Shown here: positions 10,958 to 43,214 of the stretch, one piece after another | Layout: the number at the start of each line of letters is the position of its first letter | Numbering within the stretch: the stretch's first letter is position 1 | From: Rosistilla oblonga | Lineage (GTDB): Bacteria > Planctomycetota > Planctomycetia > Pirellulales > Pirellulaceae | Direction: 5' to 3' | DNA: 64,000 nucleotides | Assembly (NCBI RefSeq): GCF_007751715.1 | Contig: NZ_CP036292.1 | Coordinates: forward strand, 1,054,001-1,118,000 | The notes under the pieces: model-generated | Told to the model about the DNA's origin: nothing | The model's input: the letters and a program-made list of their open reading frames with translations, nothing else | The model's database searches: none | Program-made: the position numbers and the translations under genes

Positions 10958-11821
10958 CTACTGCAGTGCGAGCTGCAGCCATTGGCGGGCCTGCTGCCGA
11001 TAGCGACTCTCTCGGTGCATCCAAAGGTCCATGTGTGGATGCAGATAGGGACCTTCGGGGATCGCGAACAATTGTTTGGTCGGCACGTCGAGGAACGTGA
11101 ACGCGGCCAGGTCGAGATGATCGATCAAGTAGTTGTCGCGGATCGCGCTGGCCCGCGTGCTGCTGACTAAAACGGGGCGGCCGCGGAGGCGGGCCAATCG
11201 CTGCAGCGCCGATTCGCGGTCGCTGTCGGGATAATTCCATTGCCGCTCGCCGTCAAAGTGGTCGTGGGTGAACATCCCTTTCCAAAAGCTGGCGATTTCA
11301 TCATCGGCGAGTCCGATGTAGCTAGCCGCGATCGCGCCGCGTGAGAATCCGCAGATGAACAGATTCTCGAGGTCGCCGCCGAATTCAGCGCACACGCGAG
11401 GCAGGTTCGTCTTGCAGTAGTCGACCGTCGCTTGGCGATCGCCCCACCAGGTCACCGCGTTCTCTTGCCCGCCAGCTGCGACGCAGGGCATGACTACCCA
11501 GATGAATCCTTCGCCACCGCTGATCCCATATCCGAGGTTCGCATCTTTCACTTGCCCGGTGGAATGCGACGGCGGGAATTTGTTGCCGGTGTATTCGACG
11601 ATCACCGGATATCGGCCGCCAGGCTTCCAATCGACGGGCAGGTACAAAGCGTGATGGACGTTTGTGCCAGCATATTCCGCAGCGACTTGGCGGACTCGTC
11701 TACCAGCCGCGGGTGAACCGTCTTCCATCGCAGGAGTGATCAGATCGCCGTTTGATCCCGCTGCCAAGCCGGCTCCGCAGACCGCGACGAGCCAAACGAT
11801 GGACGTAATCCGTGCACGCAA
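10958..11821 (-). CDS. Secreted alpha/beta hydrolase
   Basis: 287 residues with a signal peptide (SIVWLVAVCGAGLAAG). The middle has the nucleophile elbow GFSRGA, and YPVIVEYTGN looks like the strand before the oxyanion region; LHPHMD near the C-terminus can supply the catalytic His. The overall pattern is that of planctomycete carbohydrate-esterase or peptidase-like hydrolases acting outside the cytoplasm. Substrate unknown. It lies 87 bases downstream of the EF-hand gene on the same strand and may be co-transcribed with it. Confidence 0.75.
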   Translation of the reverse strand: MRARITSIVWLVAVCGAGLAAGSNGDLITPAMEDGSPAAGRRVRQVAAEYAGTNVHHALYLPVDWKPGGRYPVIVEYTGNKFPPSHSTGQVKDANLGYGISGGEGFIWVVMPCVAAGGQENAVTWWGDRQATVDYCKTNLPRVCAEFGGDLENLFICGFSRGAIAASYIGLADDEIASFWKGMFTHDHFDGERQWNYPDSDRESALQRLARLRGRPVLVSSTRASAIRDNYLIDHLDLAAFTFLDVPTKQLFAIPEGPYLHPHMDLWMHRESRYRQQARQWLQLALQ

Positions 11822-11908
11822 CTGAAAACTCCAAATTGCTCGGCGAATCGGTAGCTTAAACGCAGATCGACGGGGCGTCTCTTTGAGTAATACACCGCTT
11901 CGGCCGGC

Positions 11909-13243
11909 TTAACGCGTCGACTTCGCCTTCAACCAGCTGGCGTATTCTTCGACGGTGATCCGAGCGTCTTTGTTGGCGTCTGCGGGGGAGATGTCCAACA
12001 GCATGTCCTTCCATTCCGCCGCCGTCAGCACGCCGTCTTTGTTCTTGTCGCTGCGTTCGATGATCCGTTTGGCATAGCCAACATATTTGGGATCCAACGC
12101 GGCGCCGGAACCAGCGGCGGCAGGCGTTGCCGCGGCGGCCGGTTTGCTGGTGGTCGACGTCATCGCGGACTCCGAACGGGACGACGTGCTGGAACTGCTG
12201 GAGACGCTGCTTCCTGGCGACACTCCCGATTCGACGGCGCTGTAACATTCGCTGGCGGTGATCACGCCATCGGAATTGAGGTCGAATTTGAAGAAGTCGC
12301 TGATCAGATCGTCGTTCCAGACCGAAGCGTATTCGGCCATCATGACTTGCCCGTCGCGATTGCTATCGCGTTCATTGAACCAGCCGGGCAGGCCAGCATC
12401 GGATTCGGCAGCGATCCGGCGATAGGATTTCCGGCCGCCGAAGGGATCTTCGTCGCTGGCCGGTTTCTTTTCCGGTTCGCGCTTCGATTCCCTGCGACTA
12501 CGTTCCTCCTTCACCTCCTCTTCGGCCACGCGTCGGCGGGCGTAGCGGACGGCAAGTTCCGCGGGGGAAAGGCGGCCGTCGCCGTTGCGGTCGAAGTCCA
12601 GCGGATTGCCGAACCAGTTTCCGCTCATCTCCTCTTTGTCGAGGTAGCCGTTTTTGTTGCGGTCGTAGCGTCCCATCCGTTCGGCTGCGGTTCGTTCATC
12701 GCCGGGAGTCACGCGGACGGCAAATAATTCACCCACGCTACCAAATCCTGGCACGGGATCGGCGGGAGCTTCGGGTTCGAACCCCATCACCAGCTGATCG
12801 ACTTCCATCGCCTCATCGACTTCGCGGCGTTCTTGGTCGCGGTCTCTTCCGCGATCGCGATCGCTGCCACGGTCGCTGCCGCGCCCCGAATCACGCTGGC
12901 CGCGCATCTTTTCGAATCCCTGTTTCAACGCGTCCAACGAGATCGGTTTGGACGAATCGATCTTGGGATTCTCGCGAGCCATCCGGTCGATCATGTATTT
13001 CGCGGGGCCCTGCATTTCATCGGTATCGATCATACCGTTGCCGTTGCGATCGAGCCGGTCGATGAAGCTGGAGGGATCGCCTCCGCCTCGGCCACCACGC
13101 CCGCCGCGGTCACCACCTCGATCACCGCGGTCCCCACCACGATCGCCACCGCCTCGACCAAATGGCGGTTGAGACCATCCGTCGGAGGCGATGATGGCGA
13201 GCAGGCAAGCCAACGAACCGATGAGAGCTTGTCGAGAGAACAT
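11909..13243 (-). CDS. Secreted EF-hand protein with seven calcium loops
   Basis: 444 residues from the ATG at 13243, chosen because it begins a signal peptide (MFSRQALIGSLACLLAIIA). The open frame extends upstream to 13729, but that part lies over the PKS thioesterase gene and has no coding character. After the signal comes a low-complexity Gly/Arg/Asp stretch (GRGGGDRGGDRGDRGG). EF-hand loops follow: DRNGNGMIDTDE, DRNKNGYLDKEE, DRNGDGRLSPAE, DSNRDGQVMMAE, DLNSDGVITASE, DKNKDGVLTAAE and DANKDARITVEE. A charged RDRGRDRDQERRE segment separates the first loop from the rest. Such proteins are common in Planctomycetes and presumably bind calcium in the periplasm or envelope. It lies 116 bases downstream of the PKS genes. 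Confidence 0.88.
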   Translation of the reverse strand: MFSRQALIGSLACLLAIIASDGWSQPPFGRGGGDRGGDRGDRGGDRGGRGGRGGGDPSSFIDRLDRNGNGMIDTDEMQGPAKYMIDRMARENPKIDSSKPISLDALKQGFEKMRGQRDSGRGSDRGSDRDRGRDRDQERREVDEAMEVDQLVMGFEPEAPADPVPGFGSVGELFAVRVTPGDERTAAERMGRYDRNKNGYLDKEEMSGNWFGNPLDFDRNGDGRLSPAELAVRYARRRVAEEEVKEERSRRESKREPEKKPASDEDPFGGRKSYRRIAAESDAGLPGWFNERDSNRDGQVMMAEYASVWNDDLISDFFKFDLNSDGVITASECYSAVESGVSPGSSVSSSSSTSSRSESAMTSTTSKPAAAATPAAAGSGAALDPKYVGYAKRIIERSDKNKDGVLTAAEWKDMLLDISPADANKDARITVEEYASWLKAKSTR

Positions 13244-13359
13244 GCTGAAAATCCTAAGGGCAACAAAAAACTGGACGATCCCACAACCAAGGCGCAGGGC
13301 GCCACCGATTTTAACCCTGGTCGGGCCGCAGAGTTCCGAAATTGTGGCGGAGGAATTCG

Positions 13360-16300
13360 CTATTGCTGGCCGATGGCTGCATATTCGGGGGCGGGAGTGC
13401 TCTGCGGCGGTTGCAGCATCGCGAGCCCTTCGTCGATCGATTGCTCGATTTTCACTGCCAATTGCCGCACAAACGGATCGACCATCAGGCCGGCCGGGTA
13501 AGCTTCCATGCGGTGATATTCCGCTCCTTCGACAGCTTCCAGTTCCGCTCCGAGATGGCATTTGTAATCGCGGCGGGGCCGGAAATGGACGATCCGCCCC
13601 GGGTAGGGCTTGGGAACATACGCTTCGCAAATCGCGTCGTGCTGTCGCCACAGATCGGCCATGTTGACGGTCGCCCCGATCCGCCGCGGTTTCTTTTTCG
13701 AGAACAATCGCGCGATCGAACCCCGCCAAACCTTGGTGCGGACGCCCAGCGAGTGGAGCTTGGACGACAGGAACAGCCGTTTTTCCTGCGAGTTCAGCAG
13801 CAGGAAGTTCCGCAAATGGAATTCAACGCGTTGGCGGCCGTAGCTGAGTTTCGTCGCCGTGGTCGGATTGGTCGATGGAGCGGTCAGCCAGTTGTAGGTC
13901 TCGATCATTGCGAGCATCGCGACCTGTTCGCCAGCGGCGGTCAATTGTTGGGCGATCTCGAGCGCAACAGTGCCGCCGGAACAATAGCCGGCCAATAGAT
14001 AGGGGCCGTGCGGTTGGACTTCGCGAATTTCCCGCACCAATCCGGCGGCAAACTCTTCCAACGTATCGGCGATCGGCAGCCCCAAGACGCCGGGCGAATT
14101 TAAGCCATACAGCGGCTGGTCTTCTCCCAAATGATCGGCCAACGCGTGATAGATCATCGTCAATCCATCGGCGGCGGGAGTGCAGAACAGCGGCGTGCGA
14201 TCCCCTTCGGGCTGGATCTCGACGAGCGTCGAGATCCAAGAATCGCTGGCGGGCGAGCTGACCGCTGGTAAAGCGACGCTGCTAGCCTGCGTCGCTATCG
14301 ACTTTTTTTTTTCGTCGGACTCGCAAACGTCCGACGCGGCAACGGGATCGGGGAAGAAACCGCCGCGGCGGATCTCCAAGCAGCTCTCCTGAACCGCATT
14401 GATCACGTGCGCGATATCTTCATCGGAATGTTCGGTCGAGAGGAAACAGTTGTCTCCCCAGCCGCGAGTGAAGACGCCGCGATCCAACATGTGGAAATAC
14501 AACATGTCGGCGTATTCCAGATCGGGCGGGAACATGAATCGGAACTGCGAAGCGAATTGAGCGACGCGGATCGGGAACTGTTCGCGTTCAAAAAATGCGT
14601 TTAGCGTTTGGACCAGACGCGTCGTCTTGTCGGTCAGTTGTCGTTGCAGCGCGGGCCCTTCCTCTTTCAGCTTCATCAGCACTTGATGCGCCGCAGCCAA
14701 GCCCAGCGGGTGCCGGACAAATGTGCCGGCGAAGAAGGTCATGTCGGCTTCGGGTTCCGAATCGTCTTCGAACTTCCACGTGCCGCCATCCAGGGCATCC
14801 ATGTATTTTCGCGAACCGGCCAACGCGCCGATCGGCATTCCGCCGCCGAGGATCTTGCCGTAGGTCGACATGTCGGCCCAGACATCGAACCATTCTTGAG
14901 CTCCGCCTTGAGCGGCTCGGAATCCGGTGATCACTTCGTCCATGATCATCGCCATGTTCTTTTCGCGAGTGATCCGGCGAATCGCTTGCAGGAATTCCTT
15001 GGGCTGCAAAAACGGATCGGCACTCTGGACCGGTTCGATCAGCACCGCGGCGATCTCATCGGATCGCTGTTCGAGCACCTGCAGGGCTTCGGGCGTTCCG
15101 TAATCCAGCACGATCGCGTTGTCGGCAAACGTTTGAGGGACTCCGGGAGCGGCGGGGGAGGAGATGCGGCGGTCGCCGATCCGGCTGGATCGACACAAGA
15201 CTTGGTCGAAGTTGCCGTGGTAGTCCTTATTAAAGTAGACGAACTTCGATTTGCCGGTCACGGTGCGGGCCAATCGCAGCGCCGCCATGACAGCTTCGGA
15301 GCCGGTGCAGCAGAAGGTGGCGCGTTCTTTTCGCGAGAAGTCGCACAACAATTGAGCGACTTCGCCAGCGATCGCCGACTGCGGGCCAACTTCTACTCCG
15401 CGATCCAATTGTTCGTGCAACGCTTTGGTGACGAAGTCGGGTGATTGGCCGAACAGGTTCAATCCGAAGCCCATCGCGATGTCGACGTATTGGTTGCCGT
15501 CGATGTCCCACAGCTTGGAACCCTTGGAGCGTTCGACAGCGATCTGATAGACCATCGATTTCCAGATCCGGCGGTATCCCGCCACGCCGCGCGGATCGGC
15601 AAAGTGATCGCGGTGCGTTTGAGCGTGCTGACGCGATTTGGCGGTCCGCCGCGTGAAGCGGTCCATGAATTGATTCAGGTGCTGTTGCTGTTGGTCGGTC
15701 AAACCGTTGTTGGTCCCTTTGCGAACCGGTTTGTAGGGACCAAAGCGTTCGAATTTGTTGACAGGCTTGGGAGCCGGGGCGATCGCCGCGGGAGCGTCGC
15801 TAGCGCAAGCTTGCCCGTTGTTAGACGCGCAGCTTTGGCTGGCGCCGGCGTCGACGGCAGTTGGCGACGGGGCGGGGGCTGCCGGTGCGGCGGCGATCGG
15901 TTGTGATGCGGGCTGCGGCGCCGCGATGGGCTGCGGCGCGGGAATCGTTGCCGCCGGCATCACGGGGCTGGCGGGCATTGGTTGCCCGGTGAGCATCGCC
16001 AAATGAGAAGCCATCAATGCGTTGTGTTGCAGGATGATCTGTTCGACTCCGCTGACGCTGGCCACGGGGCCGCTGTAGGTGACCGGTGCGGCAGGGGCTG
16101 CGATCGGAGTGACGGGTGTCGCTGGCAACGGTTGCGGTGGCGTTGGGATCATCGCCGCGGCGGGTTGCGGCGGCGCTACCGCGGCAACCACAGGAGCCGT
16201 CGGCGCGGCTGGTTGTGCTTCGACCACCGGGGCTGCAGGTGTCGCCACAGGTTCCGGTTGTGGTGTTGGTTCCGCGACTGGTTCTGCGGCGGCAGGGTGG

Positions 16301-16599
16301 GTGACTGGTGCCGGCATTTCGGGAGCGGGAGCTGCTGCGGGGGCAGGCATTTGATCGACCAAGTGGGCGATCAACGCATCGACCGACGTGACCTCTTCGA
16401 TCAACTGGCGGAACGAGACCTTGACCGAAAACCGCTGCTTGATCTCTTGGCTCAATTGGATCAGGAACAACGAATCGAAGCCGAGTTCCATGAAGGTCGC
16501 GTCGCGATCGAGATCTGCGATTGCATAACCGGTCCGCTCGCGCAGCAGTGTCGAAAGCGTGTTTTCAACGTGGGTAAAACCGGGGTCAAGTCGATCCAT
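13360..16599 (-). CDS. ACP - class III aminotransferase - thioesterase megaprotein (PKS module, part 2)
   Basis: 1079 residues in four parts. (1) Acyl carrier domain, residues 8-83, phosphopantetheine site LGFDSL (Ser43). (2) An Ala/Pro-rich linker, about 84-285. (3) A PLP-dependent class III aminotransferase, about 340-750, with CTGSEAVMAALRLAR, MDEVITGFR and the PLP lysine in STYGKILGGG (Lys582); it resembles the AMT domain of iturin/mycosubtilin synthases, which aminates a beta-keto thioester. (4) A thioesterase, about 790-1070, with nucleophile motif GYCSGG: Cys873 replaces the usual Ser, with Glu900 (MIETYN) and His1029 (EYHRM) as the probable partners. The gene starts 25 bases after the KS-AT stop, and that protein lacks an ACP, so the two form one assembly line. 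Inferred product: a beta-amino acyl chain released by the thioesterase. Confidence 0.88.
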   Translation of the reverse strand: MDRLDPGFTHVENTLSTLLRERTGYAIADLDRDATFMELGFDSLFLIQLSQEIKQRFSVKVSFRQLIEEVTSVDALIAHLVDQMPAPAAAPAPEMPAPVTHPAAAEPVAEPTPQPEPVATPAAPVVEAQPAAPTAPVVAAVAPPQPAAAMIPTPPQPLPATPVTPIAAPAAPVTYSGPVASVSGVEQIILQHNALMASHLAMLTGQPMPASPVMPAATIPAPQPIAAPQPASQPIAAAPAAPAPSPTAVDAGASQSCASNNGQACASDAPAAIAPAPKPVNKFERFGPYKPVRKGTNNGLTDQQQQHLNQFMDRFTRRTAKSRQHAQTHRDHFADPRGVAGYRRIWKSMVYQIAVERSKGSKLWDIDGNQYVDIAMGFGLNLFGQSPDFVTKALHEQLDRGVEVGPQSAIAGEVAQLLCDFSRKERATFCCTGSEAVMAALRLARTVTGKSKFVYFNKDYHGNFDQVLCRSSRIGDRRISSPAAPGVPQTFADNAIVLDYGTPEALQVLEQRSDEIAAVLIEPVQSADPFLQPKEFLQAIRRITREKNMAMIMDEVITGFRAAQGGAQEWFDVWADMSTYGKILGGGMPIGALAGSRKYMDALDGGTWKFEDDSEPEADMTFFAGTFVRHPLGLAAAHQVLMKLKEEGPALQRQLTDKTTRLVQTLNAFFEREQFPIRVAQFASQFRFMFPPDLEYADMLYFHMLDRGVFTRGWGDNCFLSTEHSDEDIAHVINAVQESCLEIRRGGFFPDPVAASDVCESDEKKKSIATQASSVALPAVSSPASDSWISTLVEIQPEGDRTPLFCTPAADGLTMIYHALADHLGEDQPLYGLNSPGVLGLPIADTLEEFAAGLVREIREVQPHGPYLLAGYCSGGTVALEIAQQLTAAGEQVAMLAMIETYNWLTAPSTNPTTATKLSYGRQRVEFHLRNFLLLNSQEKRLFLSSKLHSLGVRTKVWRGSIARLFSKKKPRRIGATVNMADLWRQHDAICEAYVPKPYPGRIVHFRPRRDYKCHLGAELEAVEGAEYHRMEAYPAGLMVDPFVRQLAVKIEQSIDEGLAMLQPPQSTPAPEYAAIGQQ

Positions 16600-16624
16600 T
16601 GCTATTCTCGAGACAGTTCTTTGA

Positions 16625-19591
16625 TTAGGTGCGTCGTATTTGGTTTAGCAGCGTCATCTGTTGGTTCATCAACTGCATCTGCTGTTGGATCACCGTTTGG
16701 GCAACGCTGGTCGTGTGAGTTGGTAAAGGTTGTTGCGGAACCGTTGTGGCGGCCTGTTGGGCGACCGGCGGTTCGGCAGCCACTTCCACCGCCGGTTGCG
16801 GCGCCGGTTGTGGCTGTGGTTCGGGAGCCGATGTCGCTGGCTTTTCGGTCGACGCAGCAGGGTTCTGCTCGCGATCGGTTTTGCCACGCTGCAAGTCGGT
16901 TTCGAACGAATACCGTTGGCGTTCAAAGCGATACATAGGCAAGTGTAATCGCGACCTTAATTCGCCCGCGTAGACTTTTGTCCAATCGAGCGTTACGCCT
17001 TGTTGCCACAACCGTCCAATCGTTGTAACCGTAAACCTTGCGTCGGTTGCCGCCTGACTGACATGAGGCAACGACGAAAGCACATGTTGGCGGTTGGTGT
17101 CCAGCGGTTGCTGCCGCGCCAAGGTGCTCAAGGCTTGGTTGGGGCCAACTTCCAAGAGGACCAAGTCGCCCGAATGCTGTGCGATCAATGCGGCCAAGGC
17201 GTCGGAGAAGCGAACCGGTTCGCGAATCTGACGCGCCCAATAGACCGGATCGGTCGCGGTGGCGGCATCCATCGGCAGCGCTGTCACCGATGAAACGATC
17301 GGGATCGTCGGCGGATGCAACTCGATTTTTCGGACTTCCTGTTCGAACGGTTCGATCGCCGCGTCCATCATGCGGGAATGGAATGCGTGGGAGGTTCGCA
17401 GCGTGCGGCAGGCGATGCCTTCGCCGTGTCGGCCCGCTTCGATCTCGGCGGCGAAAGCCGTGACGGCTTCGCTTGGACCGGAGATGACACAGAACGCGGG
17501 GCCGTTGATCGCCGCAATCTCGAGCGATTCTGGCAGCAACGGCTGCAAACGCTCTTCTGACAATTGGACCGCCATCATCGAACCCGCTGGCAGCGACTGC
17601 ATCAACCGGCCGCGAAGGGCTACCAATCGAGCGGCATCTTCCATCGACATCACGCCGGCCAAGGCGGCGGCAGCGAATTCGCCAACGCTGTGCCCGATCA
17701 GCGTCGTCGGCTGGACGCCTAACGATTGCCACCATTTCCCCAACGCCCAAGAGATCATGAAGAGCGCCGGTTGGGCGATTTCAGTTTGATCCAAGCGATC
17801 GGTCGGCGGGGCGTCAGCGGCGGGAAAGACGAGAGTGCGAAGGTCGAGATCCAGATGCGGCGTCAAGCATTCTGCACAGGCATCGAGATGTTCAGCGAAG
17901 ACCGGTTCGGTTTCGTAGAGCGCGCGGGCCATGTCGATGTGCTGCGATCCCTGGCCGGGGAACAGGAACGCAATCGGTGTCGCGGTGGCGCGATTGTCGA
18001 CGGTCGGCGCCTGCTTGGGGCTGCGCGAGCGGAGCAATTCCACCGCTTCGGGCAGATCGCTGGCAACGACGACACGTTTGTGGCGGAACGTCTTGCGGCC
18101 AACTTGCAGCGTGTGGCTGACGTCGGCCAGATTCAGGTCGTTGTTGTCGGCAAGGTGTTGCGCCAAGTCGTCGCTCATTTGATCGAGCGCTGCCAGCGAG
18201 CGAGCCGATAGTCGGATCAGATGACAGGGACGCGGCGACGCCAGCGATTCGGAAGCGGGAGCTTCTTCGATCACCAAGTGGGCATTGGTTCCACCGACAC
18301 CAAAGGCGCTGACGCCGGCGCGGCGCGGCCCCGTCGGCGATTCCCAATCAGTCAGTTTGTCGTTGATGATGAAGGGGCTGTTGGCGAAATCGATCTTGGG
18401 GTTGGGCGATTTGAAATGCAGCATCGGCGGGATCTGGCGATGCCGCAGGGACAGACTGGTTTTGATCACGCTGCTGACGCCCGCCGCGACATCCAGGTGC
18501 CCGACGTTGGTTTTCAGCGATCCGATCCGACAGAACTGCTTCTTGTCGGTCGTCTCGCGAAACGCTTCGGTGAGCGCGTTGACTTCGATCGGATCGCCGA
18601 CCAGAGTGCCGGTGCCGTGAGCTTCGACGTAGCTGATCGTATCGGCGGTGATCCCCGCGCGGCGATGGGCCAGTTTGATCGCAGTCGATTGTCCGGAGAC
18701 GCTCGGTGCGGTGTAGCCCATTTTGTCGCCGCCGTCGTTGTTTACTCCCCAGCCGCGGATCACGGCATAGATGTCGTCGCGATCGGCGATCGCATCGCTC
18801 AACCGTTTCAGCACGACGGCGCCAACTCCGTCGCCAAAGATCGTCCCACAGGCGTCGGCGTCGAAGGTGCGGCACGATCCATCGGGTGAAAGGATCGAGT
18901 CTTCGGTGTGCAGATATCCCTGCTGCTGCGGAAACGTGACGGTCACTCCGCCGCTGATCGCCATGTCACACGAACGGGCCATCAAGTTTTCGCAAGCTTG
19001 CGAGATCGCCACCAGCGAAGTCGAACAAGCTGACTGAACGGCGACGCTTGGTCCACGTAGATTCAACTGGTAGGCGACTCGCGTGGCGAGATAGTCTTTG
19101 TCGTTGGAGATCTCCGCGGTCAAGCTGCCGCCGGGATACGAATCGGCCAGCGACTCGCGGAACTCCGCATCGGCAGCCAGCCGTGTGAAGATGTAGGTGT
19201 TCATGTGGCAGCCGGCAAAGACACCGACGCGGCCGGGAGCTGCATCGGGGACGTAGCCGGCGTTTTCCATCGCGTGCCAGGCCATCTCCAAGAACAAGCG
19301 ATGCTGCGGATCCATGTCGACAGCTTGCTTGGGATAGATGCCGAAGAACTGGGCGTCGAAGAAGTCAGCGTCTTTGACGACCGCGGCTCGCGGAACGTAA
19401 TTCGGATGCGACGGCAGGCTGCTGTTCGGGTTGTGCCCCTCCGGAACGTCGGTTACGCCGCTGAGTCCCGCCGCCAGATTTTTCCAGAACGTTGGGGCAT
19501 CGTCGGCGCCAGGAAACCGCCCGGCGAGACCGATGATGGCGACGCTGTCGGTTGTGGTGTCAGCGGATGTTGGTTCCGTGGCGTTGTTCAT
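16625..19591 (-). CDS. Type I polyketide synthase, ketosynthase - acyltransferase (PKS module, part 1)
   Basis: 988 residues from the ATG at 19591, which puts the KS start (VAIIGLAGRFPG) at residue 17; the open frame extends 59 codons further upstream without domain support. The ketosynthase (about 15-445) has the full catalytic set: Cys189 in ACSTSL, His325 in EAHGTGT, His365 in KTNVGH. The acyltransferase (about 538-850) has GHSVGE with Ser635 and HAFH at 735-738, the pattern usually linked to malonyl-CoA. The C-terminus is a Pro/Gln/Ala-rich tail ending in a Gln/Met-rich helix, a possible docking region. No KR, DH, ER or ACP domain is present. It would elongate an acyl starter once and pass the beta-keto chain to the ACP of the next gene. 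The starter-loading enzyme and PPTase are not in the window. Confidence 0.9.
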   Translation of the reverse strand: MNNATEPTSADTTTDSVAIIGLAGRFPGADDAPTFWKNLAAGLSGVTDVPEGHNPNSSLPSHPNYVPRAAVVKDADFFDAQFFGIYPKQAVDMDPQHRLFLEMAWHAMENAGYVPDAAPGRVGVFAGCHMNTYIFTRLAADAEFRESLADSYPGGSLTAEISNDKDYLATRVAYQLNLRGPSVAVQSACSTSLVAISQACENLMARSCDMAISGGVTVTFPQQQGYLHTEDSILSPDGSCRTFDADACGTIFGDGVGAVVLKRLSDAIADRDDIYAVIRGWGVNNDGGDKMGYTAPSVSGQSTAIKLAHRRAGITADTISYVEAHGTGTLVGDPIEVNALTEAFRETTDKKQFCRIGSLKTNVGHLDVAAGVSSVIKTSLSLRHRQIPPMLHFKSPNPKIDFANSPFIINDKLTDWESPTGPRRAGVSAFGVGGTNAHLVIEEAPASESLASPRPCHLIRLSARSLAALDQMSDDLAQHLADNNDLNLADVSHTLQVGRKTFRHKRVVVASDLPEAVELLRSRSPKQAPTVDNRATATPIAFLFPGQGSQHIDMARALYETEPVFAEHLDACAECLTPHLDLDLRTLVFPAADAPPTDRLDQTEIAQPALFMISWALGKWWQSLGVQPTTLIGHSVGEFAAAALAGVMSMEDAARLVALRGRLMQSLPAGSMMAVQLSEERLQPLLPESLEIAAINGPAFCVISGPSEAVTAFAAEIEAGRHGEGIACRTLRTSHAFHSRMMDAAIEPFEQEVRKIELHPPTIPIVSSVTALPMDAATATDPVYWARQIREPVRFSDALAALIAQHSGDLVLLEVGPNQALSTLARQQPLDTNRQHVLSSLPHVSQAATDARFTVTTIGRLWQQGVTLDWTKVYAGELRSRLHLPMYRFERQRYSFETDLQRGKTDREQNPAASTEKPATSAPEPQPQPAPQPAVEVAAEPPVAQQAATTVPQQPLPTHTTSVAQTVIQQQMQLMNQQMTLLNQIRRT

Positions 19592-22695: not shown

Positions 22696-25068
22696 TCACA
22701 CGCTGCTCGACGCGACGGGGCGTTCGCTTGGCTTGGACGCATACGATCGGGTGTATTGCGTCGCGTAGCCATATTCATACGGTTTGACGTATTCACCGTA
22801 GCCAAAGTGTTTGTCGGCTCGTTCGCCACCGTTGACGATAACGCCCGCAACTTTGACTTTGTTGGAAGCGAGCAGTTCGCGCGATCGCTCGACCGGTCGA
22901 CGACCATTTTTTTGGACTCGGACGACTAAGAGAACGGAGTCGACGAGAGAGGCGATGATTAATGGGTCGGCAACGGCCAACAGCGGTGGTGAGTCGATGA
23001 ACACAAAGTCGTACTCTTGTCGGGCTTCGGCGATCAACCGTTCCAATGCAAACGACTCGAGCAGTTCCGCCGGTTCGCTGGCGTGGTGCCCGTGCGAGAT
23101 GAAGTCGAGTCGTTCGATCTCCGATGGGACTGCAACTTCGTCGAGCCCCGCGTCTCCCATCAAATATTCGGCGAGACCATTTGCGTTTTGGGTACCAAGC
23201 AACTTGTAGAGCGTGGGGCGGCGAAGGTCGGCGTCGATCAACAACACGCGTTTGCCCGCCTTGGCGATTGCCGCGGCGAGATTGACTGTCATCGTCGACT
23301 TGCCATCGCCGGGCATCGGGCTGGTGACTTGAATTACGTTGTCGTTGGTTTGCCCGGCATGGACAAACAGACTGGTCCGCGCCATCGTCAAGACTTCCGA
23401 TTCGACGCTATGGGGTGCGAAGACCGTGCGGCACAGCGGGCTGATCGCAGATTGTTTGGCTGCCTTCTTCTCTTTGCGGGTCACCACGAAACGTGGAACA
23501 TGTGCGATCACGGAGGCATTGAGCGAATGCTGTAGGTCGGAGGGATCGCGAAAAGTCTGGTCGGCATGTTCGGCCCAGAAGGCAAGCAGGCCGCCAACCA
23601 ACAGCCCCGCCAAGCCACCATTTAGCAATATCTTCGCCAGCACAGGCCAGACCAAGCTGCCAAGTCCCGGTGGGGAAAGTAGGTCGATCGTGTAGCCCGC
23701 ATAGTCGGATGTGAGTTCCAGTTCCTGCAGCCGCTCCATGACAACGTCGTATCGCTGTTGAGCACGCGTCATCTTGGCCTTTAACGCGGTCCCTTCGAGA
23801 TATTCCGATTCGACTTCCTTGGCGGCAACGCGAACCGCTTTGGCTTCCTCGGTCAGTTGAGCCAGTTGTTTCGTGAGTTCTTTGACATCGTTTTTCAGTA
23901 AAGTCGAAAATGCGTCGAGGATTTCGGTGGGGGATAAATTGGACGCGACCAGTTCTTCGATACCCTCAGGAGCTTTTTCACGGATGTATTGGCGGACCGA
24001 AGCGAGTTCGTCGCGGACGCGTTGAACGAGCGGATGGTCGTCGCCATAGTCGGCGGTTAATGCTTGTTCGCGGAGCATCAAGCCGAGAACTTTGGTGTGT
24101 TCCAGATTGAGCGCCGCCGTTCGCTGTGGATCATCGCGCAACGCCCCCGATCCGCTGGGATCTCCGCTGGCGACATCCATGAAAAATCGCAAACGCTCGG
24201 TATCGCGTGGGTTCAACAACGCCAAGCGTTCGATATCGGTGCGCTGGTGTTCGACGTCTTCGGCTTGGATTTCGGCGATCGTTTCGAGTTTCGACTTTGC
24301 ATACGTCAGCTGCGAACGCACGTTGGCCAGCTCTTGTTCGATCGACTGAAGTCGATTGTGGGACACACTTTGCAATTGGTCGCCGTCGAACATGCCGACC
24401 GAAGTCGAAAGGAAGTTGGTGTAAGCTTGGGTCGCCTGTTGTAGCTCTTGCTCATTGGTCAATTGAGCCTGATTGATCAACGTCGCCGCTTCTTGACCCA
24501 CATTTTGTGTCCGTGATTCGACGTGATGGCAGTAACGCTCGTAGATCACCTCGAGAACGTGCTGAGCATCTTCGGGGTCGGCACTTTGGAAAGAGACTTG
24601 CAACACGCTCGCCCCTTCAGCGTCCCCCGATCCGCCTCGGCTGATATTCAGATCTTGTTTCAGCAAGCCGAGAGCCGAGATGCCTTCGCGACGGGCGGCG
24701 ACAAATGAATCGAGGTCCGAAAGGTTGCCCGATTCGATGGCGTCGTTGAGGATCATTGGGCTTTCGAGCAACGCGATATGGGTCGCCAGCAAATCGGCTT
24801 GGACGACGTTGGCGTCGAAGCTGCGGCCGTCGGGACCCGAGCTGGTCATCAGTTCGGTGGCGCGTTGGGAAACCAAGATCTCCATGCTCGATTCGAACAC
24901 ATCTTTGGCGTTCTGATGATAGGCAAACGCGATCCCAAGTCCGACGACCAAACCAAACATCAGCAATGGCCAGCGGCGACGCAAGATCCGCGTCATGTCG
25001 CCGGGTTGCGAATCGGTAATGCCTTCGGCGGGAAGTGTCATTTCATTCATAGGGTGATTCGTCTGCAT
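22696..25068 (-). CDS. Wzc-type polysaccharide co-polymerase / bacterial tyrosine autokinase
   Basis: 790 residues. An N-terminal membrane helix (PLLMFGLVVGLGIAFAYH) starts a Wzz domain with a long coiled coil (about 200-500), then a second helix (LAKILLNGGLAGLLVGGLLAF). The C-terminal third is a BY-kinase domain: Walker A PMPGDGKST (about 585-592), Walker A' VLLIDADLRRP, Walker B FVFIDSPP, and a tyrosine cluster (seven Tyr in the last 35 residues, such as GYGEYVKPYEYGY). In this family the phosphorylated tail controls polymer length and export. Partners in the locus are the Wzy-like gene at 25369 and the Wza-like gene at 30545. MNEMTL, six codons in, is an alternative start. Confidence 0.92.
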   Translation of the reverse strand: MQTNHPMNEMTLPAEGITDSQPGDMTRILRRRWPLLMFGLVVGLGIAFAYHQNAKDVFESSMEILVSQRATELMTSSGPDGRSFDANVVQADLLATHIALLESPMILNDAIESGNLSDLDSFVAARREGISALGLLKQDLNISRGGSGDAEGASVLQVSFQSADPEDAQHVLEVIYERYCHHVESRTQNVGQEAATLINQAQLTNEQELQQATQAYTNFLSTSVGMFDGDQLQSVSHNRLQSIEQELANVRSQLTYAKSKLETIAEIQAEDVEHQRTDIERLALLNPRDTERLRFFMDVASGDPSGSGALRDDPQRTAALNLEHTKVLGLMLREQALTADYGDDHPLVQRVRDELASVRQYIREKAPEGIEELVASNLSPTEILDAFSTLLKNDVKELTKQLAQLTEEAKAVRVAAKEVESEYLEGTALKAKMTRAQQRYDVVMERLQELELTSDYAGYTIDLLSPPGLGSLVWPVLAKILLNGGLAGLLVGGLLAFWAEHADQTFRDPSDLQHSLNASVIAHVPRFVVTRKEKKAAKQSAISPLCRTVFAPHSVESEVLTMARTSLFVHAGQTNDNVIQVTSPMPGDGKSTMTVNLAAAIAKAGKRVLLIDADLRRPTLYKLLGTQNANGLAEYLMGDAGLDEVAVPSEIERLDFISHGHHASEPAELLESFALERLIAEARQEYDFVFIDSPPLLAVADPLIIASLVDSVLLVVRVQKNGRRPVERSRELLASNKVKVAGVIVNGGERADKHFGYGEYVKPYEYGYATQYTRSYASKPSERPVASSSV

Positions 25069-25368: not shown

Positions 25369-28155
25369 CTATCGCGGTGGTTTTCCATCGCCGGACGTCG
25401 AACGGGTGCGCTGGACTTGGATCTTTGCGATCAGTGAATCGATTTGTTGACCGTTGCCGCCGAGAGCTTTGGCAACGTACGCTTGTTTTTGTGCTGAGCG
25501 AGTGTCGCCTAGATGCAGCAACAAGGAGGCTAAGCGGAGTCGGTAGTCGATGTTTTTAGGAGCGGCTTGAGTTGCGTTTTCCCAGTGTTCGGCTGCCTGT
25601 TGTGGTTGAGAATCGAGCTGAGCCAGTTGGGCGTAACTGGCGTGGCGTTCGGCTGGCGAGAGATCTGGATCCGATTCGATTACCTGCAGGCAGCGGTTTC
25701 GGCACAGCGTTGTCAGTTCGGCAAGCGATTCATCACGCATCGTCTGGCCCGTGATCGCAAGCAACAATTGCGGGGTGGCGGGTAGCAACCGGTTGGCAAT
25801 CGTCGGTAGATCCCATTGCTGTAATGCGAGTTGCATGATCGTATCGCGCCGCGGCGAAGCGATCGCTAGATAACGTCGCCACGCCTCGATCGCTGGGGCT
25901 TGTTCGCCCGCCATATAGTTCAGCAGGCCGGCCAAATAGAGTTGTTCGGGATTGCTGGGAGCCAGTCGCGTCAGACGTGCGGCGTGGGGCTGCCAGGCTT
26001 CGCCGATCCAAGGAGCCAACGTGGCGCGACTTAAATGCACCTGTGGGATCAATGGATTGGCGACGTTGGCTCGCTGAAGCGATTCCGACGCGGAACGCAG
26101 CATGCGGAGCTCGGCTTCCGATGGAGCCAAGCGATCGCGGAGCAAAGCTTGCTGTTGCGGAGCGGATGCAATCAGCGTCTCGAACCATCCCAGCGGGGAC
26201 TGGATGATCCATTGCTGATGCGTTGGGATGACGCCCGAAGACAGATCGCGATTTGCCGCTTCGCGGGCGAGGTTGTGAAGTCGTAGTTCAGCGGATTGCC
26301 ACCAAGCGTAATGCTCCCACGCCACCGCATGATCGGGCATTTCGGCGGTCAGTTGTTGCAACTGCCGACTGTTTTTGAGGCATTCGGATCTTGTTGGTAT
26401 GACCGTTTCACCGGGAGGCGTTGTGGCAACCAATATCCGGTCGGCGTGGAGTTCGCGGCCGAGAATATATTGGCTGTGCAGCAGCGGAATGGTCAGTAGC
26501 AAAAGCCAGGCGAGAGGGCTTGTCGCTGCGGGGCTGGCCAACAGGGAGGTTTTGTTGGGGGCCACCGCAGCGACGTCGAACCGACTCATGGAACGACGCG
26601 GTTCACAACCGCAAACGGCGCCTAGAAGGAGGCCTGCCGCCATCATGTTCGCGGGATACGTGATCACAAAATCGACAGCCCCCTGCCCCGCAACTGCGAT
26701 CAAAGTAATGCAGCCCGCCGCGCCGATGCCGATCTTGCTGGGATCCTTGCTTTGCGTGAAAGTCTTCCAGGAACGACGCCCCAACAGAACGATTCCCGCC
26801 GCGACGATCGCGATTCCAATCACGCCACTTTCGGTAATCACCTCGAGATATTGGTTGTGGGCATTTTCATACCACGAACGCGTATCGCGATGCTTGAAGG
26901 GAAGGTGAGCAAAGCCATAGGTGCCGATTCCCGATCCGGTAGGCAGATAGTGCCAGGCCGCATCCAACCCCGCCCAGAAGTGCGAAAACCGATCGTCGGC
27001 AGTGATGTGTCCCACCGCGAGATCGGATGAACGGTCTTCGATCCGTTGGTTCTGAGCGACCCAGAACGTAGCTGCGGTGATCAGGAGCAAAGTGCAAACC
27101 GAGAGTGCCGCGATCGCTCGCCAGCCAACCGATCGCAAGCCGGTGGCGGCAATAAATAGGAGTCCGATCGAGCCGCAGATCCACGCGCCCCGGGATAAGG
27201 AGAGGAGGACGGCAAGGCAAATCAACAGCGACAAGGCGATCGAACCGACGACGGGCAGGTCGGTCCAGTAGCCGCTGCGATTATAGGATGATGAGCTGCT
27301 AGATGATTTGGAGCTACCAAAATTCCAGAGCTGTTTTTCGGCGAGGTTCCAGATCAAGATGCCGATCGCCGCAGCCAAGCCGATCAGCAGGTAAGCCGCT
27401 CCAGCGTTGCGATAGTGAAACGTCGAAAACGCATCGTTGAAGATCTCCTGTTCAATCCCCGGGACCACCTGCGACGATCCCGTGGCGCGTTGCATGACCG
27501 ACCAGATTGCAATCGCTCCCGCATTGGCGGCGATCCCAGTCAGCAGAATCAATCGCCCCTGCTTGGTCACAAACAAAGTGCTGCCAAGAACCAGCGATGC
27601 GATCCCCAGTCCGGTCACGCTCCAATGGAGTCGGCTGGCCGCTGGAACAATGCTGATCGTTCGCTTGCGCTGCGAAGAATCTTCGCTGGCCAAGGCAGTT
27701 GAAACATCGCTAGGTTCGGGAGTGGGCGAGAACTCCGTCCGCGTTTCCGCTGCACCGGGGGAGACCGCATCGGCGATCGCCACCGGCAGCGGAAACGTTT
27801 GGATCCAGCCCCACAGCAGCCAGAGAAAGCAGAGACCGCACAATCCGGCGCGTGGCCGTGGGATCGTTTCACGCGATTCGGCGACGGTCAATCCAAACCC
27901 CGCTGCGATACTCAGTCCAACGGCAAGCTGCCACTGGACTGGCAATTCCGCACCGCCGTATCGCCAAGCCGAATAGCCCAGCAACCCCAAGATCGCGACT
28001 TGGCAGATCGGGCTGCCAATCTCTGCCCAAGACTTGCTGCGGTTGCCGTTGCTTGTTCGGCTTGCCAAGCTTGAACGATTGGATCGCGACATTGAACGGT
28101 TGTGTGGGAGAGTAAAAGAGGGAACAGATCGAAGTGACGTTTGAAGTGCAGCCAT
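25369..28155 (-). CDS. O-antigen ligase/polymerase family membrane protein (Wzy/WaaL-like) with TPR-like tail
   Basis: 928 residues. The first 560 or so carry about a dozen hydrophobic helices. A long periplasmic loop shows the family signature WYENAHNQYLEVITESGVIG, where the His is usually essential for sugar transfer; LSLSRGAWICGSIG lies in an earlier helix. After the last helix (SPLAWLLLLTIPLLHSQYILG) about 350 residues are alpha-helical with repeating 34-residue units such as DHAVAWEHYAWWQSAELRLHNLAREA and NIDYRLRLASLLLHLGD, typical of TPRs. The likely role is polymerisation or ligation of the exported glycan made by this locus. Confidence 0.85.
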   Translation of the reverse strand: MAALQTSLRSVPSFTLPHNRSMSRSNRSSLASRTSNGNRSKSWAEIGSPICQVAILGLLGYSAWRYGGAELPVQWQLAVGLSIAAGFGLTVAESRETIPRPRAGLCGLCFLWLLWGWIQTFPLPVAIADAVSPGAAETRTEFSPTPEPSDVSTALASEDSSQRKRTISIVPAASRLHWSVTGLGIASLVLGSTLFVTKQGRLILLTGIAANAGAIAIWSVMQRATGSSQVVPGIEQEIFNDAFSTFHYRNAGAAYLLIGLAAAIGILIWNLAEKQLWNFGSSKSSSSSSSYNRSGYWTDLPVVGSIALSLLICLAVLLSLSRGAWICGSIGLLFIAATGLRSVGWRAIAALSVCTLLLITAATFWVAQNQRIEDRSSDLAVGHITADDRFSHFWAGLDAAWHYLPTGSGIGTYGFAHLPFKHRDTRSWYENAHNQYLEVITESGVIGIAIVAAGIVLLGRRSWKTFTQSKDPSKIGIGAAGCITLIAVAGQGAVDFVITYPANMMAAGLLLGAVCGCEPRRSMSRFDVAAVAPNKTSLLASPAATSPLAWLLLLTIPLLHSQYILGRELHADRILVATTPPGETVIPTRSECLKNSRQLQQLTAEMPDHAVAWEHYAWWQSAELRLHNLAREAANRDLSSGVIPTHQQWIIQSPLGWFETLIASAPQQQALLRDRLAPSEAELRMLRSASESLQRANVANPLIPQVHLSRATLAPWIGEAWQPHAARLTRLAPSNPEQLYLAGLLNYMAGEQAPAIEAWRRYLAIASPRRDTIMQLALQQWDLPTIANRLLPATPQLLLAITGQTMRDESLAELTTLCRNRCLQVIESDPDLSPAERHASYAQLAQLDSQPQQAAEHWENATQAAPKNIDYRLRLASLLLHLGDTRSAQKQAYVAKALGGNGQQIDSLIAKIQVQRTRSTSGDGKPPR

Positions 28156-36963: not shown

Positions 36964-39390
36964 TTATGGCACGATGCGAAAGCGAATTGGGTGCGACGTG
37001 GAGCGGGATGTCGACGAGGGTTCCAGCCAGGCGGCTTGGCCTCGCGTCGGAGCGTTGTATTGCGAATCGGTTTCATGCAGTCGCATGTTTTCGAACCGGT
37101 TCTCCGTTTCGAAGGAGAAGTAAAACATTCGTTCGCCGTTTGCCAGGCGACGGACATGGTGGAACCTGGACGTGTCCAACCAACTGAAGCCTTCGAGCGT
37201 GTACGGCAACCGGCAATCCTCGCTGATCATCTGGGTTTCAAACGTGCCGTCATCGCGGAGGATCGCTTTGTGCATTTGAATCGCCTGCATCGCGCCGCGC
37301 TGCCGCGTCAGGTAGCGGAAGGTTTTTCCGTCGAGCGTTGCAAATCCGATCACTTCGTTGCCGATCCCACAATCTTCACTTAACAGCGTCGAATCGAAAG
37401 TCCCGCGCGAGCTCAACCTGCTCTTCATCAACGCAACCGTCCCCGACGGATTGTGATGCAGATGATAAAACGTCTTCCCGTCGGCGGTTGCGATATCGAT
37501 CACGTCGCGGCGGATCAGACAGTCCTCGGCCAGCAATGTCGATTCGAGTCTTGCCCCTGCCACTACGCGCTCTCGCAGCAGTGAAATCTTGCCATCGGCC
37601 TGTTGTTCCAGCCGTGCGGTCCAGATCGGCGTCTCATCGCTCGCGGTGACTTCGATCTCGTAGATCCCATCGCCGTCGGCGTCAGCTGGCATCGCGTCGC
37701 GCATCTTGCGATCGAAGACAAAAACTCCTTGCGTCGTCATCTTGACCAGATCGCGATCGGCGCCTCCGGTGACCGTCAGGCACAAACCATCGTACAGCCG
37801 ATCGGAGTCGTCGCTGACGTCGATCGCCCACGCGCCGGCTAACTGCTGACGCGACAGGACGATCGTTTGGCCATCGGGTTCGAAGATGAATTCGTCGAAT
37901 TGCGGCGGTTCGTTTTCGTTGCCAACTCTAACCACCATCGGCTGATCGGCGATGCGGAGCGAATAGAGATTGTCCATGTTCCGATCCAGCGGGACTTCGT
38001 AGTCGGGAGTCTGCCGGAATCGCAGCTGCCGCGTCGCGGGATCGATCTGGAAGCATTTGGCATCGTCACCGCTGAGCGTCGTCTGGCTGAGATCGCCATA
38101 TCGCTCGGGGACCAGCCCGACCGAATCGCTTCCCTCGAGAACGTTCAAGACGATTTGGTCGCTGCGATTGACGATCATGTTGGCTGCGACCGGTTTCATG
38201 CTGGTCGTCAGGCTATCGTCGGTGGCGCTTGCGACAAACAGCCCGGCGATCGCCAGCAACAGCGCAGTGGTCGTCGCCGCCACGGTCCGCGACGAAGCGT
38301 GGCTCGATTGAGGGCTGTGCTTTTTCGCTAACGCATTGAGGTCATCCGCCATTTCCGCGGCGGTCTGATAACGGTCCTCGGGCTCGCTGGCGACAGCTTT
38401 TAAAACGATCCGTTCCAGTTCGACAGGCAGCTTGGGATTTGTGTTCCGCAGAAAACCTGGCTTGGCAACGGCGAGCGCGTCGCGGGTCGCCGAGTTCATT
38501 TTCTCAAGCGTGACCAGTTCGCAAAGGGTCAGTCCTAACGAAAAGGTATCGCTGCGCTCGTCGGAGATTCCTCGCAGTTGTTCGGGAGCCATGTAGCGAG
38601 GTGTGCCCACGGCGTGATACATGCTTGTCAGGCTGTTGTCGTCGAGCGTCCGCTTGGCCAGCCCAAAGTCGGTGACCCACAGTTTGTTCGTTGAGTCGAT
38701 CAACAGATTGGCTGGCTTCACGTCGCGGTGCAGGATCTGTTTCGCGTGGGCATGGGCCAGCGCGGCAGCGGCTTGGCTGCCCAGTTGAGCGATCAGGTGC
38801 CAGTTGTCGCGCAACTGCTGCAGCAAACCAAAGGCTGCGATGTCGGTGACGCTGCTGTCGGCGTGCGACCCCGCGTGCTCTTCGTTGGCGACCCGCACGA
38901 CGTCGGCCAGATTAGGACCGTCGATCAACCGCATCGTATAGAAATGGTGTTCCGCCGATTCGCCAAACTCATAGATCGGCACGATGTTCGTGTGGTGCAA
39001 ACTGGCGACCGCACGCGCTTCGTGCTTGAAACGCTGGATCCCTTTTTCGTCCAATCGCTCCGACGAGATCACTTTGATTGCGACGCGTTCGCGGAGCGTG
39101 TCGCACTGCGCTTCGTAGACCAACCCCATCCCGCCGACGCCGATCTGACGGACGATCGGGTAGCCCCCGATGCGATCGGGAATCTGCTGCATCGTCGGCA
39201 GTTCGCCCGACGTGTTGGCGTATTCGTCCAGTTCCATCATCAACGGAAAGACACGCAATATGTCCGCCGCCTGCTCCGGAAACTGCTTCGAAAATTCGGC
39301 AACACTCAGATCGTCAGCATCGACCCGCTGCTCTTTGAAGCGGGCCCAAAGCTGTTCGATTTCGTGCAGCTGAAGGTCGGAGGCGTTCAC
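36964..39390 (-). CDS. Membrane Ser/Thr protein kinase with large extracytoplasmic domain
   Basis: 808 residues from a GTG at 39390. This start is preferred because the preceding gene ends in TGA overlapping it (GTGA, 39387-39390) and the longer open frame to 39594 only overlaps that gene. Kinase domain about 76-350: IGVGGMGLVYEA, Lys106 in VAIKV, catalytic HRDVKPANLL (Asp223), DFGLA (Asp241) and GTPRYMAPEQL. A single membrane helix at about 370-389 leads to some 415 residues outside the membrane. These begin with a cadherin-like stretch (LRFRQTPDYEVPLDRNMDNLYSLRI), then tandem units of the form ...LL(S/A)EDC... (LLAEDCLI, LLSEDCGI, MISEDCRL). It probably senses an envelope signal with its coupled LEPR protein. 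Confidence 0.88.
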   Translation of the reverse strand: MNASDLQLHEIEQLWARFKEQRVDADDLSVAEFSKQFPEQAADILRVFPLMMELDEYANTSGELPTMQQIPDRIGGYPIVRQIGVGGMGLVYEAQCDTLRERVAIKVISSERLDEKGIQRFKHEARAVASLHHTNIVPIYEFGESAEHHFYTMRLIDGPNLADVVRVANEEHAGSHADSSVTDIAAFGLLQQLRDNWHLIAQLGSQAAAALAHAHAKQILHRDVKPANLLIDSTNKLWVTDFGLAKRTLDDNSLTSMYHAVGTPRYMAPEQLRGISDERSDTFSLGLTLCELVTLEKMNSATRDALAVAKPGFLRNTNPKLPVELERIVLKAVASEPEDRYQTAAEMADDLNALAKKHSPQSSHASSRTVAATTTALLLAIAGLFVASATDDSLTTSMKPVAANMIVNRSDQIVLNVLEGSDSVGLVPERYGDLSQTTLSGDDAKCFQIDPATRQLRFRQTPDYEVPLDRNMDNLYSLRIADQPMVVRVGNENEPPQFDEFIFEPDGQTIVLSRQQLAGAWAIDVSDDSDRLYDGLCLTVTGGADRDLVKMTTQGVFVFDRKMRDAMPADADGDGIYEIEVTASDETPIWTARLEQQADGKISLLRERVVAGARLESTLLAEDCLIRRDVIDIATADGKTFYHLHHNPSGTVALMKSRLSSRGTFDSTLLSEDCGIGNEVIGFATLDGKTFRYLTRQRGAMQAIQMHKAILRDDGTFETQMISEDCRLPYTLEGFSWLDTSRFHHVRRLANGERMFYFSFETENRFENMRLHETDSQYNAPTRGQAAWLEPSSTSRSTSHPIRFRIVP

Positions 39391-43073: not shown

Positions 43074-43214
43074 AGCGAGCGTAATCTAGAGTTGAACCGA
43101 AGCAAGCCTGGGACTCTAGGATAGTTGCACAGTTAGCTTTGGGGTGCCAGCGGCACCAAAAATAGCGACATTTCTAGCTTTGTAGCTCGCCGCCCTTCTC
43201 CAAATAAGAATTCC

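What the first reader, a model, noticed from the sequence alone, without database searches (positions are those of the whole stretch)
13360..19591. Two-gene KS-AT / ACP-aminotransferase-thioesterase line predicted to make a beta-amino acid or derived amide
Seen: one ketosynthase, one malonyl-type acyltransferase (HAFH), one ACP, one class III aminotransferase and one thioesterase, in an operon with a 25-base gap and no reductive domain. Known: in iturin/mycosubtilin synthases an AMT domain after KS-AT-ACP aminates the beta-keto thioester, giving a beta-amino fatty acyl chain that goes on to an NRPS. Inference: here there is no condensation domain, so the beta-amino acyl chain is released directly. 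A free-standing compact beta-amino acid synthase like this is not one I recognise as characterised.
Basis: partly seen in the sequence, partly recalled or inferred. Interest (0 to 1): 0.8.

Follow-up and report, generated by a model that had tools for sequence, protein, structure and literature searches.

The report
Beta-amino acyl synthase near polysaccharide genes
Two adjacent genes encode a compact enzyme line that very probably builds a small beta-amino acid unit; close relatives of the line sit inside polysaccharide-building gene sets, so the unit may decorate a cell-surface sugar polymer instead of being a free lipopeptide-like product.

Summary
In detail: KS-AT and ACP-AMT-TE in a two-gene operon with a 25-base gap. 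The aminotransferase is of the iturin/mycosubtilin AMT type (47% identical to bacillomycin BamA; cleanly split from glutamate-1-semialdehyde mutases), so beta-amination is well supported. Three points change the picture. (1) The line is the shortest form of a Pirellulaceae family whose loading modules vary (FkbH-ACP, adenylation-PCP, none) and whose ends vary (TE, or C-A-T-TE). The window's KS groups with FkbH-loaded KSs, not with fatty-acyl (FAAL)-loaded iturin KSs, so a beta-amino fatty acid is unlikely; the starter is unknown. (2) The TE has a Cys nucleophile in 14 of 14 lines of the clade and Pro for the catalytic His, yet is under purifying selection: simple hydrolytic release is doubtful. 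(3) In relatives the pair lies in polysaccharide loci: a single-copy deacetylase gene lies within 1.2 kb in 6 of 14 genomes, but far off in the window's genus. Best reading: a compact synthase of a short beta-amino acyl group for transfer, perhaps onto an exopolysaccharide. AMT chemistry is strongly supported; polymer transfer is inferred.

The parts
13360..16599 (-). ACP-AMT-TE protein (1079 aa)
   Evidence: Pfam domains; related proteins in the 13 other genomes of the clade, (in five of them with C-A-T between AMT and TE)
16360..16560 (-). acyl carrier protein domain (residues 14-80, Ser in GFDSL)
   Evidence: PF00550 46.5 bits
14344..15708 (-). AMT: class III aminotransferase of the mycosubtilin type (residues 298-752)
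   Evidence: phmmer 467 bits to 6kfm/6kfu; tree
13435..14244 (-). thioesterase-like domain (residues 786-1055) with Cys nucleophile and no His at the catalytic place
   Evidence: PF00975; alignments; fold model and search
13981..13983 (-). codon of Cys873, nucleophile position of the TE (GYCSGG)
13495..13497 (-). codon of Pro1035, in the place of the catalytic His of other TEs
   Evidence: numbered from Arg1030
16625..19591 (-). KS-AT protein (ATG start at 19591; a GTG start at 19768 is possible)
   Evidence: Pfam domains; in G006 the open frame begins 26 residues before the KS match
18254..19549 (-). ketosynthase domain (residues 74-505)
   Evidence: PF00109/PF02801; KS trees
17024..17968 (-). 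malonyl-type acyltransferase domain (HAFH)
   Evidence: PF00698; HAFH rule recalled
22696..25068 (-). Wzz/Wzc-type tyrosine autokinase, neighbouring polysaccharide gene
   Evidence: Pfam/NCBIfam
25369..28155 (-). O-antigen ligase/Wzy_C protein, neighbouring polysaccharide gene
   Evidence: PF04932
30545..31975 (+). polysaccharide export protein (Wza-like)
   Evidence: PF02563

Best explanation
The pair is a minimal one-extension polyketide line that makes a short beta-amino acyl thioester. An acyl group of unknown source (no loading domain remains; acetyl from malonyl, or an acyl group handed over in trans) is extended once with malonyl by KS-AT on the ACP, and the AMT replaces the beta-keto oxygen by an amino group. 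The TE-like domain, with a Cys nucleophile and no His at the catalytic place, takes the beta-amino acyl group and passes it to an amine or closes it on itself, and does not simply hydrolyse it. The likeliest acceptor is an amino sugar or other amine of an exopolysaccharide made by the Wzx/Wzy-type loci with which the line is linked in relatives. Shown here: domain make-up, AMT family, KS grouping, missing His, selection, gene linkage in relatives. Inferred: starter, transfer chemistry, acceptor.
For: AMT: 467 bits to mycosubtilin AMT vs 189 to the best GSAM; 56 AMT rows incl. bacillomycin BamA split from 19 GSAM-like rows at SH-aLRT 100. Starter side: FkbH found in 7 of 16 genomes searched, in none of the six (G000, G006, G072, G028, G108, G096) whose KS-AT lacks a loading module; the KSs of these six form one clade (100/99), together in one clade with six FkbH-loaded KSs (100/99.9); five FAAL-loaded KSs form another. 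TE: GYC[SL]GG in 14 of 14 lines of the clade; Pro in the His place in 13 of 13 after near-copies were dropped, against His in 9 of 10 and Asn in 1 of 10 other TEs. Selection: omega within the genus 0.01-0.05 for TE, 0.00-0.01 for AMT. Polymer link: deacetylase gene matched once in each of 14 genomes (E 1e-30); gap to the pair 209-1195 bp in 6 of 14 and 22 kb in 1; in G028, G108 and G096 Wzc-like, Wzy_C, DegT, MocA-type, AsnB and GT genes lie in the same 20-30 kb as the pair.
Against: In the window's own genus the deacetylase is 0.45-1.08 Mb from the pair, in G072 its match holds a stop, the sigma-factor gene lies between the pair and Wzc/Wzy, and no copy-number control was made for Wzc/Wzy. 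In 4 of 14 genomes (G051, G063, G025, G132) no gene of the 12 kinds sought was found in the stretches held, and the deacetylase is on another contig. The starter and the acceptor are not identified. Cys with no His could also mean a weak or non-catalytic domain.
Confidence: 0.42

Rival explanations
1. One reading: an iturin-like line that makes a free beta-amino (fatty) acid, cut off by ordinary TE hydrolysis.
For: AMT of the MycA/BamA type and a C-terminal TE; the own genome has 16 AMP-binding matches, among which a fatty acyl ligase acting in trans could be.
Against: KS not in the FAAL-loaded clade, p-AU 0.036 (test chosen after a first tree); none of the 16 AMP-binding matches of the genome lies in the window and no free ACP was found near the pair; TE without the catalytic His.
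Confidence: 0.17
2. A small diffusible product formed by ring closure: the Cys-TE turns the beta-amino acyl chain into a beta-lactam or other lactam, as the Cys-TE of SulM does for sulfazecin.
For: Cys nucleophile and a beta-amino thioester, as in SulM; SulM and ObiF pair Cys nucleophiles with small products (passages of PMC11298585).
Against: SulM and ObiF keep a Cys-His-Asp triad with Asp moved to the loop after beta7; here His is replaced by Pro. SulM and ObiF were not among the 50 of 1732 Foldseek rows shown.
Confidence: 0.13
3. A decaying line that lost its loading module, with a dead TE.
For: Loading domain missing in six genomes whose sister KSs have it; TE triad altered; KS-AT in two overlapping frames in G096 and in G132.
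Against: Low dN/dS in every catalytic domain and AMT 100% and 99.8% identical inside the genus; the Cys and Pro are shared by lines that keep the loading module and C-A-T.
Confidence: 0.08
4. The line makes a beta-amino acid building block used by an NRPS elsewhere in the genome.
For: Sister lines pass the chain to a C-A-T-TE module; the own genome has open frames of 1775-2929 aa with AMP-binding matches.
Against: The compact lines have TE in place of C-A-T-TE, and no AMP-binding match of the genome lies in the window.
Confidence: 0.12

Closest known systems
Mycosubtilin/iturin/bacillomycin D synthases (MycA, ItuA, BamA)
   Same: KS-AT-ACP followed by an AMT of the same family (47% identity to the BamA AMT; 467 bits to the MycA AMT)
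   Different: no FAAL-ACP loading, no C-A-T; TE fused to the AMT; KS in another clade
Adenylation-loaded A-T-KS-AT-ACP-AMT lines (Pedobacter, Rhizobium, Pirellulaceae; A-CP-KS-AT-CP-PLP1 of Pedobacter in Table 2 of PMC3870968)
   Same: same KS-AT-ACP-AMT core; KS mostly 47-54% identical to the window's, FAAL-loaded KSs 38-43%
   Different: have an adenylation-type loading module and further adenylation domains downstream (BLAST only for all but one)
FkbH-loaded Pirellulaceae lines (G051, G063, G140, G087, G111; G132 and G025 each over two contigs)
   Same: same AMT clade and same Cys/Pro TE; G051 (and by its two pieces G132) share the ACP-AMT-TE protein
   Different: keep an N-terminal FkbH-ACP, expected to load a glyceryl-type unit from 1,3-bisphosphoglycerate; G063, G140, G087, G111 and G025 end in C-A-T-TE
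Cys-nucleophile TEs SulM and ObiF
   Same: Cys nucleophile in a type I TE fold acting on a small product
   Different: they keep the catalytic His and an Asp in position II (PMC11298585, passages); here Pro for His and Glu for the usual Asp

Membership tests
MycA-type AMT domain family | AMT closer to embedded PKS AMTs than to GSAM/omega-transaminases | tested here: met
MycA-type AMT domain family | AMT after a PKS ACP in the same protein, with PLP lysine | tested here: met
   YGK aligned with 6kfu (role of the Lys recalled)
MycA-type AMT domain family | amination of a beta-keto acyl-ACP in vitro | not testable with these tools
   needs an enzyme assay
Iturin-type lipopeptide synthase | FAAL-ACP loading module | tested here: not met
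   FAAL-loaded KS clade excludes the window KS
Iturin-type lipopeptide synthase | NRPS module after the AMT | tested here: not met
Canonical type I thioesterase | Ser/Cys-Asp-His triad | tested here: not met
   Cys and Glu present, His replaced by Pro in sequence alignments
Canonical type I thioesterase | alpha/beta hydrolase TE fold | tested here: met
   PF00975; model pLDDT 72.5, Foldseek best match a TE, 7crn E 1.4e-18
Beta-lactam/lactone-forming Cys-TE (SulM/ObiF) | Cys nucleophile with His and Asp at position II | tested here: not met
   Cys present but no His at the conserved place; position-II acid not tested
Exopolysaccharide-locus member | linkage to polysaccharide genes beyond chance | tested here: inconclusive
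   strong in relatives (within 1.2 kb of a single-copy deacetylase gene in 6 of 14), weak in the window itself

The most novel reading that the evidence does not exclude
Polyketide-type lines with an aminotransferase serve as acyl donors for an exopolysaccharide: beta-amino acyl groups (in FkbH-loaded relatives 3-amino-4,5-dihydroxypentanoyl, in the window an unknown short acyl) are transferred by a His-less Cys-TE onto an amino sugar made by the DegT/MocA-type genes of the same loci.
Probability: 0.3. Interest if true: 0.82.

Novelty: new variant of a known kind. Interest (0 to 1): 0.6.

Why it matters
If right, polyketide machinery would not only make diffusible metabolites but also custom substituents for surface polymers in planctomycetes, and the natural series (FkbH-loaded, adenylation-loaded, unloaded; with and without C-A-T) is a ready test bed for how loading and release parts are swapped around one KS-AT-ACP-AMT core. 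Even in the plain reading, it is a compact two-protein system for making beta-amino acids that can be reconstituted.

Tried and rejected
Considered and rejected: AMT as a GSAM or omega-transaminase; FAAL-loaded fatty-acyl line; a separate FkbH elsewhere in the genome (no match; the same search finds it in 7 relatives); a free-standing ACP near the pair (only the ACP of the pair itself was found at E 0.05 in 16 loci); an upstream gene between sigma factor and KS-AT as a missing loading enzyme (in G006 and G072 the open frame there is a low-complexity acidic protein without Pfam match).

Led nowhere: the phylum-wide and order-wide searches gave no usable answer, so the spread of the compact layout outside the family is not measured. 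Literature: (FkbH with aminotransferase domain and beta-amino; exosortase with polyketide synthase and exopolysaccharide; beta-amino acid with AMT domain; FkbH with planctomycete) returned no paper; one unrelated paper; four papers, of which I saw passages of two; one search listed 20 of 22 planctomycete papers, of which I saw passages of one.

Weak points of my own work: my non-overlap ORF filter hid the deacetylase of G108 behind an antisense frame (searches show it). 'XrtA/PEP-CTERM' names of neighbours rest on NCBIfam matches below the curated cut-offs. The AU test was chosen after the tree had been seen. Three AMT rows with stop signs were dropped (L039, L048, L050), six near-copies, and 12 of 50 KS rows. 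In the KS tree the group 'adenylation-loaded or other' holds L034, whose locus has both a FAAL-type and an adenylation-type ligase.

Full report
What is there. The window is part of a 7.25 Mb single-contig genome (G000, 1054001-1118000). On the minus strand one gene encodes KS-AT and, 25 bases further, a second encodes ACP-AMT-TE. Pfam shows no reductive, condensation or adenylation domain in either.

The AMT. phmmer against the PDB gives 467 bits to the AMT of mycosubtilin synthase (6kfm, 6kfu) and 189 bits to the best glutamate-1-semialdehyde mutase. In NCBIfam the best of 71 matches (25 shown) is a GSAM model well below its cut-off (265.9 against 398 bits), which could mislead an annotation. 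In a tree of 75 rows (81 less 6 near-copies; three rows with stop signs dropped before) 56 AMT rows, including BamA of bacillomycin D and a Planktothrix line with FAAL, form one side of a branch against 19 GSAM-like rows, SH-aLRT 100; two AMT rows, L030 and L034, are long branches. AMTs outside the window's clade are 39-53% identical to it, BamA 47%. Amination of a beta-keto thioester is then the expected reaction, from what is described for MycA (passages of PMC3870968 and PMC4219810).

The family. With the ACP-AMT-TE protein as query, 25 of 149 genomes drawn from the same family, the own one included, have a match at E 1e-80 or better. I fetched the surroundings of 19 of the 24 others. The AMTs of 13 of these and of the window form one clade of 14 (SH-aLRT 100). 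Layouts: KS-AT | ACP-AMT-TE in G000, G006, G072, G028, G108 and G096 (there KS-AT in two frames); FkbH-ACP-KS-AT | ACP-AMT-TE in G051 and, by pieces on two contigs and with KS-AT in two frames, G132; adenylation-type loading with ACP-AMT-TE in G037; FkbH-ACP-KS-AT | ACP-AMT-C-A-T-TE in G063, G140, G087 and G111 and, by pieces on two contigs, G025. FkbH is by NCBIfam TIGR01686 at 309 and 316 bits in L117 and L119, cut-off 146.65; it is found in 7 of 16 genomes searched and not in the own genome. Pfam was run on the PKS proteins of the window, L112, L117, L119 and L127 only; the other layouts rest on BLAST. The six other fetched genomes (of the 11 outside the clade) have A-T-KS-AT-ACP-AMT in one protein with C-A-T in the next.

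The starter. The KS tree follows the loading module: in a tree of 38 rows (12 of 50 left out as near-copies or a long branch) the six FkbH-loaded, the six unloaded and the five FAAL-loaded KSs are each one clade (100/99), and FkbH-loaded plus unloaded are together one clade (100/99.9). Holding unloaded and FAAL-loaded KSs together costs 20.6 log-likelihood units, p-AU 0.036; I chose this test after seeing the tree, which weakens the p-value. The adenylation-loaded KS of G037 lies outside that joint clade although its AMT is inside the AMT clade, so cores and loading parts have probably been recombined. This speaks for a small or at least non-fatty starter, but the unloaded group has gone its own way, so glyceryl is not implied for the window. 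FkbH-like proteins are described as loading glyceryl from 1,3-bisphosphoglycerate on ACPs (passages of PMC7489565). No free ACP was found near the pair in 16 loci. The own genome has 16 AMP-binding matches, none in the window, so a ligase in trans is possible. Acetyl from malonyl decarboxylation, giving 3-aminobutyryl-ACP, is another option (inference).

The release domain. In 14 of 14 lines of the clade the TE reads GYCSGG or GYCLGG, Cys in the place of Ser. In the alignment, after near-copies were dropped, 13 of 13 have Pro where 9 of 10 other TEs from the loci have His and one has Asn; that one also has Cys. The eight TEs fused directly to the AMT also have Glu for the Asp that the five C-A-T-TE lines and all ten others keep. 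His928 is kept in all 13 but also in five of ten others; His818 and His987 are kept in the eight compact ones; I cannot place them. The TE is under purifying selection: omega 0.01-0.05 among the three same-genus genomes, 0.13 to G028, 0.23 between G028 and G108; AMT 0.00-0.01, 0.08 and 0.10. The model (9 sequences, mean pLDDT 72.5, lid poor) matches TEs, best 7crn. In SulM and ObiF a Cys nucleophile goes with ring closure of small products, but those keep His (passages of PMC11298585). So hydrolytic release is doubtful and transfer or cyclisation is possible; both are inferences.

The surroundings. In the window a Wzc-type kinase, a Wzy_C protein and a Wza-like protein lie about 3-12 kb upstream, behind a sigma factor on the other strand. 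In G028, G108 and G096 the pair shares 20-30 kb with glycosyltransferases, two AsnB-like amidotransferases, a DegT-type aminotransferase, a Wzc-like protein, a Gfo/Idh/MocA oxidoreductase, a Wzy_C protein or its homologue and a NodB-like deacetylase (by one PDB match, E 2.5e-9, and recalled motifs); a clear Wzx homologue is in G028 and G108, a weak one in G096; FemAB-like proteins are in G108 and G096. The deacetylase is matched once in each of 14 genomes at E 1e-30, several of them drafts, with partial matches in G063 and G025 and a stop inside the match of G072. Its gap to the pair is 237, 1195, 335, 426, 853 and 209 bp in G028, G108, G111, G087, G140 and G037, and 22 kb in G096; it is 0.45-1.08 Mb away in G000, G006 and G072 and on another contig in G051, G063, G025 and G132. 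By my own arithmetic (no shuffle was run) a single gene falls that near in a 7 Mb genome with a chance of about 0.05%; common descent reduces the six to perhaps two or three events. In a search with 12 such proteins, six adenylation-loaded lines had no match, in stretches of 12-20 kb, while the clade's stretches were 14-64 kb; two hydrolases beside one adenylation-loaded line (L127) do match exosortase-A-associated hydrolase models below cut-off, so that group may not be free of polymer links either. MocA plus DegT is a known pair for 3-amino sugars (recalled), which would offer an amine for acylation.

Verdict. A compact beta-amino acyl synthase: AMT chemistry likely (about 0.85), non-fatty starter likely (about 0.65), non-hydrolytic TE about even, service to a surface polysaccharide about 0.4. 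Among the 15 Aminotran_3 layouts of the 2013 survey none is CP-PLP1-TE; three have an alpha/beta hydrolase before the PLP domain (section 7 of PMC3870968 read whole). The review of planctomycete metabolites names a type III PKS cluster as the only targeted BGC study (passages of PMC12078418). That the layout is undescribed is only as good as searches, of which most hits were seen as listings, in a library that lacks most subscription papers.

Noticed in passing
L119:3253-14664, L120:2592-13871, L121:2380-13591, L122:5771-18541: FkbH-ACP-KS-AT / ACP-AMT-C-A-T-TE lines: an FkbH loading module with a beta-aminating AMT, expected to give an amino-dihydroxypentanoyl unit joined to an amino acid.
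   Followed up: partly
L112:4221-5843, L113:14137-15537: In the two same-genus genomes a low-complexity acidic protein with an LEPRTLLSA stretch near its N-terminus lies between the sigma factor and KS-AT; the window has only about 200 bases between GTG start and sigma-factor start.
   Followed up: partly
L116:11913-14862 and L124:2091-7192: KS-AT of G096 and of G132 is open in two overlapping frames (frameshift or assembly error).
   Followed up: no
plasmid hits; loci L011, L012, L015, L026-L029, L031, L033, L035: AMT-bearing lines are common in rhizobia: 28 of 50 plasmid records with a match are from Agrobacterium, Rhizobium or Sinorhizobium, and the ten rhizobial genome loci form one AMT clade.
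   Followed up: no
L025:18522-19421: The only other Cys-nucleophile TE among ten outside TEs also lacks the catalytic His (Asn instead).
   Followed up: no
L127:14002-15770: Two alpha/beta hydrolases beside an adenylation-loaded AMT line match the exosortase-A-associated hydrolase models below cut-off.
   Followed up: no
window 36964-45826: Two protein-kinase-domain ORFs flank a 1228-aa ORF (39387-43073, minus) without Pfam match.
   Followed up: no
window 10958-13729: An EF-hand repeat ORF (11909-13729, overlapping the end of the ACP-AMT-TE gene as listed) and the next ORF (10958-11821, no Pfam match) follow the pair and are kept in G072.
   Followed up: no
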